From the NCBI RefSeq assembly GCF_000376385.1, contig NZ_AQWN01000006.1, positions 62,001-126,000 of the forward strand: a stretch of DNA of 64,000 bases, read 5' to 3'. The notes beneath the pieces are model-generated. The model did no database searches, was not told the DNA's origin, and saw only the letters and a program-made list of their open reading frames with translations. The translations under genes were made by a program, and so were the position numbers. Below are positions 10,411 through 21,317 of this stretch, piece by piece; positions within the stretch are counted from its first letter, which is position 1; the number at the start of each line of letters is the position of its first letter. The DNA comes from Desulfurispora thermophila DSM 16022. Its GTDB lineage: Bacteria > Bacillota > Desulfotomaculia > Desulfotomaculales > Desulfurisporaceae.

Positions 10411-10773
10411 TTAGCGCAGCAGCTTTTTTAGCACCATTTCCAATTGATCCGGGGTAAAGGGCTTGGTGATCCAGGCGGTGGCCCCGGCCTTGCGGGCCTC
10501 TTCTTTTTTCGCCTGCTGCGACTCGGTGGTCAGCATGATAATGGGTGTAAAACGGCAGGCCGAGTTTGCCCGAACCTGCCGGATAAAAGTTATACCGTCC
10601 AGACCGGGCATGTTAAGGTCGGTGATAACCAGATCCGGCTTTTTGGTGCTCAATTGCTTCAGCGCCTCGTCCGCCCGCTGGAAGGTATACAGCTCGTAGC
10701 CGCGACGCTCCAGGGCCAGCCTGATGCTGGCCAGCACGGTGGGAGAGTCGTCCACCGCCAGAATCTTATACAT
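10411..10773 (-). CDS. cheY: CheY-like single-domain response regulator (last gene of the che operon)
   Basis: A 120-residue receiver domain with no output domain. The acidic pair is in KILAVDDSP, the phospho-acceptor aspartate in VITDLNMPGLDG, the switch threonine in MLTTES and the lysine in WITKPF. All phosphorylation residues are present. It would be phosphorylated by the CheA of the same operon. Its ATG lies inside the end of the upstream STAS gene (8-bp overlap), suggesting translational coupling. It ends 281 bases before the GGDEF/HD-GYP start, across the riboswitch region. Its partner (flagellar motor or another target) is not evident. Confidence 0.93.
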   Translation of the reverse strand: MYKILAVDDSPTVLASIRLALERRGYELYTFQRADEALKQLSTKKPDLVITDLNMPGLDGITFIRQVRANSACRFTPIIMLTTESQQAKKEEARKAGATAWITKPFTPDQLEMVLKKLLR

Positions 10774-13857: not shown

Positions 13858-14949
13858 TCATTGTACAGCCTTGATCAGCGCTTCGGCAATAGCGTAGTGG
13901 GGTAAAACCAATTTGGCACCACCCCTTTTTACCGCTTCGCCCGGCATCCCCCAGACCACCGCCGTCTCTTCGGCCTCGGCTATGGTCATACCACCGGCCC
14001 GCCTTATATCCACCATGGCGTCTGCCCCGTCGTCACCCATGCCGGTCAGCAGCACCGCCACCAGGTTCCCGGCGTCCAAGCACTCCAGGGCAGAGCGGAA
14101 AGCCACATCTACCGAAGGTCTGAAAAGGGCATCCATGGGCCGGTGGGAGTGCCGTAGCCGGCAAACCTTCTCGCCAGGCCGGCGGTCGACCCTCAGGTGC
14201 ACTCCCCCCCGGGCCACCACCGCCAGCCCCGGCACGAGAGGCATACCCTCGACTGACTCTTTAACCTCTAGCCGGCATTCCCGGTTCAGCCGTTCAGCAA
14301 AAGGCCGGGTGAAGCTTTCAGGCATATGCTGCACCACCACCACGGGAGCGCCGAAGTTCGCCGGCAAAAGGGGCAGTATTTCCATCAAAGTCTTCGGGCC
14401 TCCGGTGGAAACACCGATTAACACCAGTTTTTCGCTTTCACCAGGCACAGTCCTTGTCTTGCCTGGCCTGGCGGGCGGGGCACCGGCCGTGGCAGAATCG
14501 GCCGGACCTGAACCAGGTCTGCGCTTAAATTTCATGGCCCCGACCCGCACCCGGCGGGCGGCCTTGATCTTGTCACGGATCTCCCGGGCCGCGTTTTTTA
14601 TGTTCAAGGACACGGTACCATCCGGCTTGGGAACATAATCCACCGCCCCCAGTTCCAGCGCCTCAAAGGTGGTCAGTGCCCCTTTTTGGGTGAGAGAGGA
14701 CACCACCAGAACCGGGCAGGGACGCTGGGCCATAATGTATTGGATGGCCGTAAGGCCATCCATGTGCGGCATATTGATGTCCATGGTAATCACATCGGGT
14801 TCCAGGGACAGATTCATCTCAACAGCTTCCCTGCCATCACGCGCCGCCCCCACCACCTCCAGCTCCCGATCTTCCTCGATAATTTCCCGCAGGTACTTGC
14901 GCATCAGCGCAGAATCGTCAACGATCAGCACCCGCGTCTTCCTGTTCAT
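13858..14949 (-). CDS. cheB: Chemoreceptor glutamate methylesterase CheB
   Basis: A 363-residue protein with an N-terminal receiver (VLIVDDSALMRKYL; VITMDINMPHMDGLTA; VSSLTQKG) and a C-terminal methylesterase. The esterase triad is visible: Ser in LIGVSTGGPKT, His in VVVQHMPESF and Asp in LLTGMGDDGADAM. It removes methyl groups from receptors, opposing CheR. The linker (about 140-190) is Arg/Pro-rich and variable. The start overlaps the end of the triple-CheW gene by 32 bp, so the two are probably coupled. Confidence 0.96.
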   Translation of the reverse strand: MNRKTRVLIVDDSALMRKYLREIIEEDRELEVVGAARDGREAVEMNLSLEPDVITMDINMPHMDGLTAIQYIMAQRPCPVLVVSSLTQKGALTTFEALELGAVDYVPKPDGTVSLNIKNAAREIRDKIKAARRVRVGAMKFKRRPGSGPADSATAGAPPARPGKTRTVPGESEKLVLIGVSTGGPKTLMEILPLLPANFGAPVVVVQHMPESFTRPFAERLNRECRLEVKESVEGMPLVPGLAVVARGGVHLRVDRRPGEKVCRLRHSHRPMDALFRPSVDVAFRSALECLDAGNLVAVLLTGMGDDGADAMVDIRRAGGMTIAEAEETAVVWGMPGEAVKRGGAKLVLPHYAIAEALIKAVQ

Positions 14950-16438
14950 TCTCCTCTACTCCTCCTGTGAATTCCGCCGCCACCTGCGCCACCTCCATCT
15001 GCTCTGCGCCGGTCAAAACACTCTGCAGTTTCAAGAGCAGGATTGACCGCTGTGAGTCCGCCGACCTGACCACGCCCTGCAGGTAACCGGTATCCAGGTG
15101 AGCCCCCAGAACCGCCGGCACCGGAGCGATCTGGTCAGCGGCAATCTTGCGCACCTCCCGCACGGCATCCACGACGAGGCCGGTGGGAACTCCGTTCATG
15201 TCCACCACAACGATGCGGGACCGGTCGTCGTTTTCCCTGGCCGGAAGACTCAGCTTCAACCTCAGGTTGATCACAGGCAGAATGGTACCCCGGATATTGA
15301 TCACACCTTCCACGTAAGCCGGCGCTCTGGGCACCCTGACTATTTCCGGCGGGCGGATGATTTCCTTCACGCTTTGGATGTTTACAGCGTATTCTTCCTC
15401 CTGCAGGTGGAAGATGACAAACTGCTCCTCGCTGACGACTCTTCGCTCCGGGCCCGCCTCCGTCTCCTCATCGCCGGATCCGTCCAGGTTGATTTCTCCC
15501 TCGGACAAAATGCTGTGGGGATCCAGCAGGTAGATCAGCCGCTTTCCTTCGCCCAGCTTGCAGACACCGGTAAGGTTTTTGGTATCATCTCCTCTCAGCA
15601 ATTCCGGCAGTGGCTCGATCTCTTCCGCTGTAAAGCGCAGGACCTCGGTGATGGAGTCCACACCCAGGCCGACGACCATTTTTTTCTCATTAACACCGAG
15701 GTTCAGCACTAGCACCCTGGCCCGATCGTCGTAGGGCCTGTCGGGTAGATCGAAGAACCGCCTCAGGTTCAGCATGGGCACGGTGCGCCGGCGCAGCGAG
15801 AAAAGGCCGTCCATATAGTGGGGAAAGCCGGGGGAGCGGGAAATCCGGTCCGGTACCCGGACGATTTCCTGCACCGTCTCGATGGCAACGGCGTACTCCT
15901 CCTCAGCCAACCTGAATCCCACAAACTGCTTCAACTCCTCCTGGCCGGCGGCCTCATTTTGCTTTTCCAGTACCGCCGCTCCGGAGTAATGCGCGGAACC
16001 GGCCCCCTCCAACCGCGGAAACAGTACCTCAATATTGATCACCATCACCATGGTGCTGCCATCGTCCGATTTTATCACGCGGGAGATCAATTCCTCCCGC
16101 CCCCGGGCGGCGCACAGGGTATCCTCCGTGGCATTCTCCAGGTTGATTACTTCCGACATGCGGTCCACTATATAGCCTATGGTTTCCCCCCGGTATTCAA
16201 GCACCACCACCCTGGTAGCGTCGGTTTCCACCACATCCGGTATATTAAAGCGCTTACGCCCGTCTATTACCGGCAAAATATTGCCTCGCAGGTTGGCCAG
16301 GCCGGAGAAGTAGTGCGGCGTACCGGGCACCCGCACCATCTCGGGCAGACGAATGATTTCCCGCACATACTCCAGTTCAATACCAAACAGCTCTTTGCCC
16401 AGGTAAAAGGTGACCATCTGACCACCAGCATTTTCCAT
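14918..16438 (-). CDS. Triple-CheW protein: three CheW domains in one chain
   Basis: A 506-residue protein made of three CheW repeats and little else. Domain 1 is about 5-150 (MVTFYLGKELFGIELEYV; GLANLRGNILPVIDGRKRF). Domain 2 is about 168-315 (FVGFRLAEEEYAVAIETV; GLFSLRRRTVPMLNLRRFF). Domain 3 is about 338-485 (FVIFHLQEEEYAVNIQSV; GVINIRGTILPVINLRLKL). Each keeps the hydrophobic core and the LRG/LRR-x-P turn. A single CheW normally couples one CheA to receptors, so three in a chain could act as a built-in array linker. No ordinary single-domain CheW gene is visible in the window. It lies between the tandem MCP and cheB, and overlaps cheB. Confidence 0.93.
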   Translation of the reverse strand: MENAGGQMVTFYLGKELFGIELEYVREIIRLPEMVRVPGTPHYFSGLANLRGNILPVIDGRKRFNIPDVVETDATRVVVLEYRGETIGYIVDRMSEVINLENATEDTLCAARGREELISRVIKSDDGSTMVMVINIEVLFPRLEGAGSAHYSGAAVLEKQNEAAGQEELKQFVGFRLAEEEYAVAIETVQEIVRVPDRISRSPGFPHYMDGLFSLRRRTVPMLNLRRFFDLPDRPYDDRARVLVLNLGVNEKKMVVGLGVDSITEVLRFTAEEIEPLPELLRGDDTKNLTGVCKLGEGKRLIYLLDPHSILSEGEINLDGSGDEETEAGPERRVVSEEQFVIFHLQEEEYAVNIQSVKEIIRPPEIVRVPRAPAYVEGVINIRGTILPVINLRLKLSLPARENDDRSRIVVVDMNGVPTGLVVDAVREVRKIAADQIAPVPAVLGAHLDTGYLQGVVRSADSQRSILLLKLQSVLTGAEQMEVAQVAAEFTGGVEENEQEDAGADR

Positions 16439-16483: not shown

Positions 16484-18421
16484 TTACACTTGCTGCAGTT
16501 CGTCCGCCAGGGCCGCGATCTCCTCGATGGCCCGAGCCAATTCCTGCATCCCGGCCGCCTGCTGCTTGGCCGCTGCAGCCGCCTCCTCAGCTGCCGAACT
16601 GGCCTCCTGGGCCGCCGCAGCAATCTGGTCCACCGCCTTCCTGGCCTGTTCCACCGCCACGGATATCTGGTCGGCGTTTTCCAGGATTGCTTCGGCGCCC
16701 TTCAGCACCGTTTTCATGTCGCTCTCGATCTGTACCAGATCGTCGGTGGTCTTCTGAGCACGCTTTACCTCTTCGGCGGCGCTTTCGCCCACCCGCACCA
16801 CATCATCAATGACCACTTTCACCTGATCCTGGATAGCCTTGACCAAATCTTTGATCTGCTCCGCGTTTTTAGTGCTGTCCTGGGCCAGATTGCGGATGTC
16901 TGAGGCCACCACTGCAAAGCCCTTGCCGAATTCCCCGGCCCGGGCCGCCTCAATGGCCCCGCTCACCGCCAGCATGTTGGTCTGTATGCCCACATTGACA
17001 ATGGTGTCCACGATCTTGTCGATGCGCCGGGTGATAACCTCCAGTTCCTTGATTTTCTGCACATTTTGCTGGTTGGCGGCCAGCGCCTCTCCAATCCCCC
17101 GGATCAGCGCATCCACGGCCACCTTGTTCTGAGCCAGCATATCCGATAGATTTTTGGTTGTATCCAGGGACTTCCTGGCCGTGCCAGCCACATTCTTAAC
17201 CATGTTGTCTATATTGGCCGCCGCCTCCGCTGATTCATCCGCTGCCTTGGCCTGACGCTGGGCGCCGATGGAAATCTGGTTCAGAGCCTCCATGATCTGC
17301 TGAGAGGCCTGGTTGGCTTCCTCGATGGCGGCGGAAAGCTCTTCCGCGGCGGCGGCCAGTTCTTCCGAGGATTTGTTGATGTCGGTAGAGGCGCGCAGAT
17401 TGTCGGCCATTTCCGAAAGTTCTTCCGCCGCGGAGGTGATGTCTCCCATTACCTTGGCCTGATGTTCCACCGCGACCAGGGACTCCTCCGCCGCGCCAGC
17501 CTGTTCTTCCGCCGCCGCCGCCACATCCGAAATCCCCTTCTGGAACTCCAGGGCGGCTTTTTCTAGCTCCACCGAGAGTTTGTCAATATCCACCGTCAAA
17601 CTGATAACATCTTCCATTTCCCGGCCAATTCTTACCAGGCTTTCGTTGATCTCCTTACCCTTTCCAGCCTCTCCCCGGGCAGTGGTCGCCGCCTGGTTGA
17701 CCGCTCCAGCGATCATCTTGACCTCCCCCTGGATGGTGTCAACCAATTCCCGTATGTCGTTGGCCGCCTTTTCTGAAATCTCCGCCAGTGTGCGCACTTC
17801 ATCGGCCACCACCGCAAAACCTTTGCCGTGCTCACCGGCCCGGGCAGCCTCTATGGCAGCGTTGAGGGCCAGCAAATTGGTCTGATCAGCGATTTTCACC
17901 ACGGTGCTCACAATGTTGCCAATGCTCTCGGCCTGTTTTTCCAGCTGGGCCACCAGATCCGCGGATTCAGCATTGCGTTCTGCCGCAACATTGACGCCAT
18001 CCACCAGGCTGGCTATGTCCCGCATGACATGGTTAACCAGTTGCTGCACTGCCCGGCCCCTTTCCAGAGCCTCGGCAGCCCCCTTGGCGCTGGCTTTTAT
18101 GTTGCCCACGATCTGGTTCACGGCGGCAAGGGACTCCTGGGTGGCCCCACCCGCCTCCTGAGCCCCGGTGGATATCTGTTCCATGGCCGCCCGCAGTTCC
18201 TCTACCGCCGAGGTGGCCTCTTGCACGCTGGAAGACATCTGCTCGGTAGCCGCCGCCAGGCGCTCAGCAATCTGCTGCTGTTTGGCAAATGTTCTCGCCT
18301 GCTTCCTTTGTTGCTCCATCTTCTTCTGCAGTTCCTTGTCCTCCCTGATGGACTTGCTTCCCTCTTTCACCCCGGGTTGCAGACTGTCCTGGGGCAGTGG
18401 CGATAAGGTTTTTTGTGCCAT
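16484..18421 (-). CDS. Soluble MCP-like protein with two tandem signalling hairpins and no sensor domain
   Basis: A 645-residue, almost wholly helical, Ala/Glu-rich protein with no signal peptide, membrane segment or recognisable ligand domain. Two chemoreceptor tips occur in one chain. The first (around residues 175-215) reads [20 protein letters not shown] and [11 protein letters not shown]. The second (around 470-510) reads [20 protein letters not shown] and [11 protein letters not shown]. Coiled-coil heptads surround each tip. Ordinary MCPs have one hairpin. The second tip departs from the usual [11 protein letters not shown] core at VSG, so the two may contact CheA/CheW differently. It lies upstream of the triple-CheW gene. 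FrzCD is a known sensor-less cytoplasmic MCP but has one hairpin. Confidence 0.9.
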
Positions 18422-18568: not shown

Positions 18569-19657
18569 TTAAAAAAACTCGATATTGCCGGCCATCCCAC
18601 CGCTATCTTCATCGATACTGGCTCCCGGTTGGAGGGCGCGGCGATGGACAGCCCGTTCGCTTTCCATGGTGTACATCTCTTCCAGCTCTTGCAGGATATC
18701 AAACTTTTTAATTTCCTTCCCTGCTTCGCAACCGGCCAGCAGTTCCTCCACCCGCAACAAAATGTCCCGCACATGGGATATTTGCTGGGCCACCGCATCC
18801 TGAAATTGAAAGGCGGTAATACCCTCATCCAGGTAGCGATCCATAGTTTTCAGCTCCGCGGCAATTCTAGCCGCATCCGCCGCCGCATCTTCGTCCCACT
18901 GCCGGTGGAGGGCCAACAGTTCGCGAACTTCTTTTTGACCGTTCGTCAACTCGTCAGCAACTGCCTTGAGGTCGGCGGTACTATTTTCCATATCTGATAT
19001 TTTATCCCTAATATTCTGCAAGAGCAGGTGACCAAACTGCCTAACACTTTGTACTGCTTTCCCGGATTGGCCCGCCAAGTTCTGGATCTCTCCGGCTACC
19101 ACTGCAAAACCGCGCCCGGCCTCGCCAACCCTGGCCGCCTCAATGGCGGCGTTCAGTGCCACCAGGCGAATGCGGGCAGATATTTCCTCCAACTCGTTTA
19201 AAATACCGAAAAGTTTCTCAGCTTTTTGCTCTAGGTCGAATATCACCTGATGCATTTCTTTCGCCACGCCCATGCGATCCTGCAACAGAGCAAGAAGTTT
19301 TTCCATATTTTGATATGCATGGTAAAAAGTCTCTTCCTGCCTACTGCGGCCGTACTGTTGATCCTTGAGCAAAACTTCCAGAGAGGATAGACTCTGGCGC
19401 ACCCGGGCCATCACTTGCCCCACCGCGTCAGCAGACTTTAAAACACCTTCTTCCGCGGTTCGGACGGATTCTTCCAGGTTGGCTCGTAGCACAGGGAATA
19501 GTTTTAACAGCTGCTCGTACACCTTTCTTTCCCCGCTAGAGATGCAATCCTCTGACCCGCCCCTGGTGGCCAGCCAAAGATGAGCGGCAACTAAGCCACA
19601 CAATATTCCGGCCAAAAACAGCAAGGCATAAAACATTTTTCCATACCCCTGTTTCAC
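18569..19657 (-). CDS. Short membrane-anchored MCP-like protein with a C-terminal CheZ-like DxxxQ motif
   Basis: A 362-residue protein with one N-terminal membrane helix (about 9-29), no periplasmic sensor and no HAMP. A central signalling-hairpin-like stretch holds [19 protein letters not shown] and [11 protein letters not shown] (around 160-195). Further on, the helix [16 protein letters not shown] carries Asp287 and Gln291. The F-Q-D-x-x-x-Q pattern is the same as in the active-site helix of the CheY-P phosphatase CheZ. It overlaps cheR by 4 bp upstream and is separated from the tandem MCP by 147 bases. The name MCP is safe; a phosphatase role is only inferred. Confidence 0.82.
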
Positions 19658-20475
19658 TTTTGATATATAATGGCTTCTTTGAATCTGCGCAACTTGAAAA
19701 TTGGTGTTATCCTGCTCATGGATTCGGAATGGCCTAGAAAAATGAACCCGCCGGGCTCCAGAGAGCGGTAAAAACCCAGGGCCACCTCCCGTCTGGAATG
19801 ATCATCGAAATATATCAAAACGTTACGGCAAAAAACAGCATGGAACCCGCTCATCCGCTCCATGGCTTCCCTATCCATCAAATTCAGCCGGTACAGACAG
19901 ACGCGTTTTTTTACATCCGGCCTAACCCAGTAACCGTTTCCGTCGAAACGAAAATATTTTTGCAAATAGTCCACCGGTACATCCTTTACCGCCCTAGCAC
20001 CGTAATACGCCCTTTCGGCCGATTTGAGCGCTTCCGTATTGATATCGGTGCCGTGCACCTCAAAGTGCATTCCTGTATCACCAAGCATCTCCAGTAATAT
20101 AATGGCCAGCGTGTAGGGCTCCTCTCCGGTGGAGCAGCCGGCGGACCAGACTTTCAGCTTGCTGCCCCGGAGGTTCTGAGCCAAAAGCGGGATTACTTCC
20201 TCGGCAAAGCACTTCAACTGCATATACTCGCGGAAAAAATACGTCTCGTTGACGGTCAAAGAATTGACCAAAAATTCAAGTTCTCTTTTCGCGGAATGAA
20301 ACCGCAGGTGGTTGAAATAAAGGCTGAAACTTTTAAAGCCCAGTTCCTGCATACGTTTTTCCACGCGTTTGGTAACATAATAATTTTTGTCGGCCCCAAA
20401 TCTGATCCCGGTTTTCTGGTAAATAAATTCGGCGAGGCGGGTAAAATCGGCTGCATTCAGGATTGCACCACTCAT
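19654..20475 (-). CDS. cheR: Chemoreceptor glutamate methyltransferase CheR
   Basis: A 273-residue SAM-dependent methyltransferase acting on receptor glutamates. The N-terminal helical domain begins at [14 protein letters not shown]. The SAM-binding core shows [40 protein letters not shown] and [14 protein letters not shown], in the order of the CheR family. Full-length. It overlaps the HEAT gene upstream and the short MCP gene downstream by four bases each (ATGA), indicating one translationally coupled operon. The lack of a C-terminal tether partner is normal for Bacillota CheR. Confidence 0.96.
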
Positions 20476-21008
20476 AGGCTTTTCCTCACCAATTCAAGTA
20501 CGTAGCGGAGATAAGGGTAATCGCCAAATTTGGCAATTGTCCCGGCCACCCTGTCCAGCAGATCCACATCCTCAGGCCCACCCAGCACCCCAAGGCATTC
20601 CAGGGCCGCAGCCAGAACGTTCTGATTTTCTACTTCCCCACTTGAGATCAGCCGCTCTAAAAAGCGACGCACCAGCCCCACCGCCGCTTCGCTTCTGATC
20701 CCGGCAAGTATGTTGAAACAGAGTATTTTTAAATCCGGGTCGGAGTTGTGGAGCAATTGTTCCAGACGATCCATGTACATGACACCCAATTCCTGCAGCG
20801 CCTCCACCGCCAGGTTGCGCAGATGGGCTTCGGGAGAAGAAAGGAGTGAAATAAAATTCTCCACTACCTCGGGTGCGCCCAACCGGACGGCCTGCACAAA
20901 GGCCGCCTCTCTTACTGCCGGCTCCTGCGTCTTGACCAGCAACTCAAAGATTGTTTTTAGATCGCCATCAGCAGCATATCTGTTGATCCTCTCAAAGATA
21001 TCATCCAT
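20472..21008 (-). CDS. HEAT-repeat protein, first gene of the chemosensory operon
   Basis: About 178 residues of repeated alpha-helical hairpins with the HEAT/PBS-lyase spacing: EPAVREAAFVQAVRLGAPEVVENFISLL, SPEAHLRNLAVEALQELG, DPDLKILCFNILAGIRSEAAVGLV, and NVLAAALECLGVLGGPEDVDLL. No catalytic motif is seen. Such folds usually bind proteins. The start is taken as ATG 21008 because GGAGG lies upstream (spacing about 13, long); ATG 21032 has no visible ribosome-binding site. It overlaps cheR by four bases and heads the operon, so it probably serves the chemosensory complex as adaptor or regulator. Its partner is unknown. Confidence 0.75.
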   Translation of the reverse strand: MDDIFERINRYAADGDLKTIFELLVKTQEPAVREAAFVQAVRLGAPEVVENFISLLSSPEAHLRNLAVEALQELGVMYMDRLEQLLHNSDPDLKILCFNILAGIRSEAAVGLVRRFLERLISSGEVENQNVLAAALECLGVLGGPEDVDLLDRVAGTIAKFGDYPYLRYVLELVRKSL

Positions 21009-21317
21009 CTTATTGTTCTGCCCTCCTTCCATATAACTTCATATCAAACCCGCTGTTTAAACACTGGCATTAATCGAGTAGGAGGGGGCGGCTAGCCCCC
21101 AACCTCTCACACCACCCTTATCTATTAAACTCAAATTAGGTAACAGGAAAGCTAGCCTAAGCTATCCTTACATCAAAAAACTAATTAATAAATTATTAAC
21201 AAGAAACTTAACTTCGACGTAATGTTTTTTTATCCTACCATTTTTGTCAATTTACCCCCCCCCCGCATAAAATTTTCTTATAGATGTATAAAATTATCTT
21301 ATCAATCATCCCGGAAT
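21009..21317 (-). other. Upstream region of the chemosensory operon, with a C10 homopolymer and a GC-rich hairpin
   Basis: No gene is seen. On the plus strand a run of ten C residues lies at 21255-21264. On the minus strand this is G10, followed a few bases later by TAAATTGACA, a possible -35 without a clear -10. GGGGGCTAGCCGCCCCC (minus strand, around 21083-21100) can form a strong short hairpin in the leader. The rest is AT-rich. It must contain the operon promoter, but no convincing full match was found. Confidence 0.5.

What the first reader, a model, noticed from the sequence alone, without database searches (positions are those of the whole stretch)
16484..18421. Soluble chemoreceptor with two signalling hairpins in one chain
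Two complete MCP tips in a single 645-residue protein, with no sensor or membrane part. The second tip reads [15 protein letters not shown], departing from the usual [11 protein letters not shown]. It could bridge two CheA/CheW rings or two array layers, or pair one conventional and one modified tip.
Basis: seen in the sequence. Interest (0 to 1): 0.72.

Follow-up and report, generated by a model that had tools for sequence, protein, structure and literature searches.

The report
DosM double-tip scaffold of an F9 array
The gene encodes a receptor-shaped scaffold protein with two signalling tips, a kind already known as DosM from the cholera bacterium's two-layer internal chemosensory arrays; it is real and widely conserved, its two tips are consistently different, and sequence evidence suggests that the two halves lie side by side.

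Summary
In detail: window 16484-18421, minus strand, is one intact 645-residue soluble protein with two MCP tips (centred on residues 197 and 497) and no sensor or membrane part. It is no gene-fusion error. It is a DosM-type receptor in a complete F9 chemosensory operon (triple CheW, CheB, CheA, CheY, CheR, HEAT protein), a kind already described in Vibrio cholerae and about 70 other species. I found it in about 100 genomes. Tip-to-tip distance is exactly 300 residues in 97 of 99. The odd second tip is a family signature: all sampled C-tips form one clade and their differences are near-invariant. New here is evidence on geometry: AlphaFold2, a heptad-phase slip, the only clear natural indel and clade-controlled covariation point to a break at the exact midpoint (345-350) and to the N- and C-hairpins packing side by side in one four-helix bundle. 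That can be an intramolecular U-turn, or an antiparallel domain-swapped rod spanning the two layers; these data cannot separate the two. A parallel rod with N-N and C-C ends is disfavoured. In passing: the operon's short receptor carries a CheZ-like phosphatase motif.

The parts
16484..18421 (-). DosM-type double-tip soluble receptor, 645 aa
   Evidence: ORF; MCPsignal copies, no other domain; family alignments
17780..17893 (-). N-terminal signalling tip, residues 177-214 ([38 protein letters not shown]), canonical
   Evidence: near-invariant in 98 aligned proteins; hairpin turn at residue 195 in AF2
16880..16993 (-). C-terminal signalling tip, residues 477-514 ([38 protein letters not shown]), conserved variant
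   Evidence: M/V/G/E/aromatic signature at Tsr positions 377/380/382/391/392; all C-tips one clade, support 1.0
17369..17398 (-). Hub / midpoint break, residues 342-351 ([10 protein letters not shown])
   Evidence: midpoint 347 of tips 197 and 497; non-helical 345-347 in AF2; heptad-phase slip; only clear natural indel, L101, at 349-350
18290..18421 (-). N-terminal extension (residues 1-44); low confidence to residue 25, conserved basic helix from about residue 39
   Evidence: pLDDT under 50 for 1-25; conservation from residue 39 on
14918..16438 (-). CheW3, concatenated triple CheW adaptor
   Evidence: three PF01584 stretches; a CheW3-type gene beside dosM in 74 of 80 inspected loci
13858..14949 (-). 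CheB methylesterase
   Evidence: PF01339 + PF00072
13464..13841 (-). CheY-like response regulator
   Evidence: PF00072
10998..13457 (-). CheA kinase (Hpt, H-kinase_dim, HATPase_c, CheW)
10411..10773 (-). second CheY-like response regulator
   Evidence: PF00072
18569..19657 (-). Short membrane-anchored MCP-like protein with a CheZ-like FQDxxxQ motif; candidate array partner or phosphatase
19654..20475 (-). CheR methyltransferase
   Evidence: PF01739/PF03705
20472..21032 (-). HEAT-repeat protein conserved in F9 clusters
   Evidence: PF13646; a homologue in 59 of 80 loci

Best explanation
This is DosM, the sensorless scaffold receptor of an F9 chemosensory cluster. Each chain has four long helical arms of about 150 residues: arm 1 runs to tip 1, arm 2 back to a central hub, arm 3 to tip 2, arm 4 back to the hub. 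The two tips are old, specialised paralogues. The N-hairpin and the C-hairpin pack side by side at equal distance from their tips, so each four-helix bundle carries one canonical and one modified tip. This arises either by a U-turn at the hub within one chain, or by two chains crossing antiparallel at the hub, which gives a rod with the same mixed tip pair at both ends. The bundles dock in CheA/CheW3 baseplates, alongside sensor-bearing receptors, and hold together the two-layer cytoplasmic array, as reported for V. cholerae DosM. Shown here: identity, operon, frozen length, tip asymmetry. Inferred from AF2 and covariation: side-by-side packing. Taken from the literature on V. cholerae, not shown for this protein: baseplate docking and layer stabilisation.
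For: Identity: DosM and CheW3 are the named signature components of F9 (PMC9321776); both are here with CheA, CheB, CheR and CheY; homologous loci in other phyla have the same set. Length: tip-to-tip distance is 300 residues in 85 of 86 homologues (where other anchor letters make it print as 301) and in 11 of 12 further ones; of 98 aligned sequences only L101 has an internal gap in residues 60-629 (two others stop at contig ends). Tip asymmetry; tree. Side by side: AF2 model pLDDT 91.3, pTM 0.69, helices 25-194, 196-344, 348-644; structural alignments to helical bundles span model residues 117-579, and a single MCP hairpin (3zx6, 303 residues aligned) spans 50-624, as expected if arms 1 and 4 are neighbours. 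Covariation at equal distance from the tips, against a within-clade shuffle null: arms 2-3 z 3.6-5.6 (0 of 100 shuffles reach it), arms 1-4 z 2.5-3.4 (0-1 of 100), comparable with the known contact 3-4 (z 3.3-3.9); the diagonals 1-3 and 2-4 are weaker. Hub break: heptad phase slips by about one residue only across 334-362; the only clear natural indel is a 2-residue deletion at 349-350, and L102 has glycines there. Spacing: E. coli Tar fragments give 31 nm sandwiches and V. cholerae arrays 35 nm (PMC3964821); lengthening 31 nm for arms of 150 instead of about 132 residues (Tar fragment limits from memory) gives about 36 nm.
Against: AF2 here is a monomer prediction and cannot show a dimer or a domain swap. 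Covariation rests on about 70 effective sequences; one positive control (arms 1-2) was weak (z -0.6 to 2.2), and part of the raw same-level signal persists after within-clade shuffling. The published cryo-tomography reading is an extended rod with one signalling domain at each end; the original paper was not available to me.
Confidence: 0.7

Rival explanations
1. Parallel rod: two DosM chains run in the same direction, N-tips paired at one end and C-tips at the other, with a continuous 300-residue central helix; the two array layers are then chemically different.
For: Simplest reading of two tandem MCP domains and of the published extended rod (PMC7534058); fits tip specialisation, since each layer could use one tip type.
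Against: Predicts no covariation between N- and C-hairpins away from the hub, but arms 2-3 and 1-4 covary at equal level; AF2 breaks the helix at 345-347; heptad phase slips there; the natural indel lies there.
Confidence: 0.2
2. U-turn single-chain pseudo-dimer that does not span the layers (one of the two forms left open in the best explanation): each DosM chain alone mimics one MCP dimer with both tips in the same baseplate, and the sandwich is held by hub-to-hub contacts.
For: AF2 monomer with a 3-residue break at the hub; alignment ranges; polar S-T-D/N hub, glycines in L102 and a deletion in L101; soluble E. coli receptor fragments form sandwiches with no covalent link (PMC3964821).
Against: V. 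cholerae DosM was reported to reach from one baseplate to the other (PMC7534058). The domain-swapped antiparallel rod explains the same contacts.
Confidence: 0.3
3. Assembly error or fresh fusion of two adjacent MCP genes.
For: None beyond the unusual architecture.
Against: Same architecture and length in about 100 genomes; C-halves form a single clade with support 1.0.
Confidence: 0.01
4. Only tip 1 is functional; tip 2 is a decaying copy.
For: Tip 2 departs from the MCP consensus at several positions.
Against: The departures are themselves near-invariant in 98 proteins (V380 in 97, G382 in 98, M377 in 95, E391 in 94), and the flanks of tip 2 (Tsr 361-366, 413-422) are at least as conserved as those of tip 1.
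Confidence: 0.03

Closest known systems
DosM (VC1403) of the V. cholerae cluster I / F9 system
   Same: Two tandem MCP signalling domains, no sensor, no membrane span, gene in a cluster with a concatenated triple CheW and CheA (PMC7534058, PMC9321776). Two unnamed DosM proteins from the order of Rheinheimera (L092, L093; 42% identical to the window protein) also have the 300-residue tip distance and the STDINKS hub.
   Different: Different host lineage; the V. cholerae protein is modelled in the literature as an extended rod, whereas the evidence here suggests a break and side-by-side hairpins. VC1403 itself was not compared directly.
Ordinary MCP dimer (for example Tsr 1QU7, T. maritima 2CH7)
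   Same: Hairpin tip, long antiparallel coiled coil, methylation-like clusters; each half aligns to these.
   Different: Ordinary MCPs have one tip per chain and pair identical tips in homodimers; here two different tips are on one chain.
R. sphaeroides cytoplasmic cluster (TlpC and partners)
   Same: Cytoplasmic two-baseplate sandwich (PMC3964821).
   Different: Reported spacing 27-30 nm and single-tip soluble receptors (the latter from general knowledge).

Membership tests
DosM (F9 double signalling-domain receptor) | two MCP signalling domains in tandem in one chain | tested here: met
   MCPsignal copies and tips at 190 and 490
DosM (F9 double signalling-domain receptor) | no sensory domain (true of 98% of DosM homologues per PMC9321776) | tested here: met
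   Pfam and NCBIfam find only MCP-type or coiled-coil matches; no membrane segment
F9 chemosensory class | concatenated triple CheW (CheW3) in the cluster | tested here: met
   14918-16438, three CheW stretches
F9 chemosensory class | CheA, CheY, CheB and CheR in the cluster (full F9 set) | tested here: met
   same set in homologous loci
F9 chemosensory class | coexists with another chemosensory system and with flagella (usual, not obligatory) | tested here: met
   second CheA at G000:C9, further CheW genes, two flagellin-type genes
DosM (F9 double signalling-domain receptor) | integrates into both CheA/CheW baseplates of a cytoplasmic sandwich array | not testable with these tools
   needs cryo-tomography
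DosM (F9 double signalling-domain receptor) | extended rod with one signalling domain at each end | tested here: inconclusive
   AF2 monomer and covariation favour side-by-side hairpins; compatible with an antiparallel domain-swapped rod, disfavours a parallel one

The most novel reading that the evidence does not exclude
DosM is not a parallel rod with one tip type per layer. Its two hairpins fold beside each other, as a single-chain heterodimeric receptor or its antiparallel domain-swapped form, so every bundle carries one canonical and one modified tip. That would fix beforehand which subunit faces the trimer centre and which binds CheW/CheA, an asymmetry that homodimeric receptors must choose on assembly.
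Probability: 0.5. Interest if true: 0.62.

Novelty: new member of a known kind. Interest (0 to 1): 0.42.

Why it matters
As a gene it is an ordinary member of a published family. It matters because DosM is a natural case of two different receptor tips in a fixed 1:1 ratio. If they pair in one bundle, the roles of the inner (trimer-contact) and outer (CheW/CheA-contact) receptor subunits can be separated by mutating one tip at a time, which homodimeric receptors do not allow. The conserved 300-residue spacing and the midpoint hub give precise sites for testing how two-layer arrays are held together.

Tried and rejected
Assembly error or gene fusion: rejected. Degenerate second tip: rejected. 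The original DosM paper was not in the library. VIA-align top hits to TTYH channels and pore-forming toxins are generic long-helix bundles, used only for their aligned ranges, not as relatives. Raw covariation offset z-scores overstate the case, because a same-level signal persists after swapping halves within clades; only the clade-controlled values are relied on. Top-pair binomial tests agree in direction but treat pairs as independent. AF2 of the short MCP-like partner was too uncertain at the motif (pLDDT about 50-60), so no fold search was made with it. No Pfam CheZ match for that family. The single 301-residue case (L013) lies in a stretch that looks locally frameshifted.

Full report
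Observation. The finding is real. On the minus strand, 16484-18421 is one intact ORF of 645 residues whose only recognised domain is MCPsignal. The tips lie at residues 190-197 and 490-497. There is no hydrophobic span and no sensor domain.

Context. The gene sits in one minus-strand run: HEAT protein, CheR, a short membrane-anchored MCP-like protein, this gene, a triple CheW, CheB, CheY, CheA and a further CheY. The genome has a second CheA with a CheW elsewhere, and flagellin-type genes. In published terms this is a full F9 cluster: PMC9321776 takes DosM (two signalling domains in tandem) and CheW3 as the signature of F9, found as full clusters in 64 of 2,781 species. PMC7534058 describes V. 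cholerae DosM as an extended rod that integrates into both CheA/CheW3 baseplates of a two-layer cytoplasmic array. The baseplates there are 35 nm apart (PMC3964821).

Distribution. Plasmid-borne F9 loci of Methylobacterium, Eleftheria and Methylosinus carry the order DosM, CheW3, CheB, HEAT, CheR, CheY, CheA. A search with the C-tip as query gave 80 loci from Bacillota, several classes of Proteobacteria, Thermodesulfovibrio, Acidobacteria, an actinomycete (Paractinoplanes), Magnetococcales and others. A CheW3-type gene lies beside dosM in 74 of 80 inspected loci; several of the rest end at a contig edge. Within groups it is rare: 4 of 59 other relatives, 2 of 294 others in the order of Rheinheimera, 8 of 398 and 4 of 384 others in two further groups.

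A frozen ruler. The distance from tip to tip is 300 residues in 97 of 99 proteins; the exceptions are L013 (301, in a locally frameshifted-looking stretch) and L101 (298). Over residues 60-629 only L101 has an internal gap among 98 aligned sequences; two others simply end at contig ends. The conserved hub motif (commonly NSTD-V/I-A-KS) lies at the exact midpoint, residue 347. Within one length class of MCPs such rigidity is expected (general knowledge); here it holds across two linked hairpins. Methylation-like clusters stand 102-115 residues from the nearest tip on arms 1, 2 and 4, whereas the matching place on arm 3 lacks the acidic pair; whether any is methylated is untested.

Two different tips. 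In Tsr numbering the N-tip is canonical (D373, L377, L380, N381, A382; mostly K or Q at 391, H392), while the C-tip reads I373, M377, V380, N/S381, G382, E391, F/Y392, each near-invariant. In a tree with other MCPs of the same genome all C-tips form one clade (support 1.0), and the two halves show similar internal groupings. So the C-half arose once in this sample, long ago, and the halves have stayed together.

Geometry. AF2 with 75 sequences gives mean pLDDT 91.3, pTM 0.69 and helices 25-194, 196-344 and 348-644, with a turn at tip 1 and a break at 345-347. The second tip is scored as helix throughout, but pLDDT dips there as at tip 1, and residues 343-645 align to solved MCP hairpins over 303 residues. 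Single MCP hairpins also align across 50-624, which needs arm 1 and arm 4 as antiparallel neighbours. The heptad phase is steady along each half and slips by about one residue only around the hub. The only clear natural indel falls at 349-350, and L102 has glycines there. Covariation between positions at equal distance from their tips, tested against shuffles of each arm within clades, is strongest for arms 2-3 (z 3.6-5.6, 0 of 100 shuffles) and present for arms 1-4 (z 2.5-3.4), as for the known contact 3-4 (3.3-3.9); diagonal pairs are weaker. This is the pattern of one four-helix bundle in the order 1-2-3-4. It fits a U-turn chain or an antiparallel domain-swapped rod, which share the same contacts; it does not fit a parallel rod. 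Caveats: small effective sample, one weak control (arms 1-2), monomer prediction only.

Size check. Tar fragments, about 132 residues from end to tip (from memory), form 31 nm sandwiches; with 150-residue arms the same stacking gives about 36 nm, close to the 35 nm measured in V. cholerae. Both surviving models share this length, so it does not choose between them.

Partner. The short receptor 18569-19657 has an N-terminal membrane segment, an MCP tip, then FQDxxxQ and a C-terminal acidic-hydrophobic end (here IEFF, IELF in most others). Related proteins occur in F9 loci of several phyla; Q284, Q286, D287 and Q291 are invariant in 14 sequences. A profile of the C-terminal part matches E. coli CheZ (1KMI) with E 0.0014 and aligns the motif with CheZ FQDLTGQ; DxxxQ is the CheZ/CheT phosphatase motif (PMC12654446). 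A Polynucleobacter locus keeps the membrane part, the motif and the tail without an MCP tip. Designed coiled coils of similar E-value appear in the same list, so this is a lead, not proof.

Verdict. A new member of a known kind, with a testable revision of how its two halves are arranged.

Noticed in passing
window 18569-19657 (-); L020, L032, L051, L052, L073, L081, L083, L103, L124, L125, L126: Short, often membrane-anchored MCP-like protein of F9 loci carries an invariant FQDxxxQ-type motif and a conserved C-terminal [IVM]E[LF]F; a C-terminal profile matches E. coli CheZ (E 0.0014) with the catalytic D and Q aligned. Possible receptor-phosphatase hybrid; L033 has the module without an MCP tip.
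   Followed up: partly
L117:644-1516 (G000:C4:149300-151000): Soluble 290-residue MCP with an N-terminal Rossmann-like domain (weak GFO_IDH_MocA match, E 1.7e-4, below the curated cut-off): a possible NAD(P)-type chemotaxis sensor.
   Followed up: partly
L125:394-1512, L126:1423-2550: A relative with DosM on the same contig (G054:C51) carries two near-identical copies of the short FQDxxxQ receptor there.
   Followed up: no
L101, hub at residues 349-350 in window numbering: The one clear natural indel in DosM between the tips is a 2-residue deletion at the hub, in a divergent homologue.
   Followed up: yes
window 20472-21032 (-): A HEAT-repeat protein is a steady but unexplained member of F9 clusters (homologue in 59 of 80 loci).
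   Followed up: no
L001:18631-19392, L003:18346-19197: A ParA-family gene lies downstream of cheA in two plasmid-borne F9 clusters, perhaps for positioning of the cytoplasmic array.
   Followed up: no
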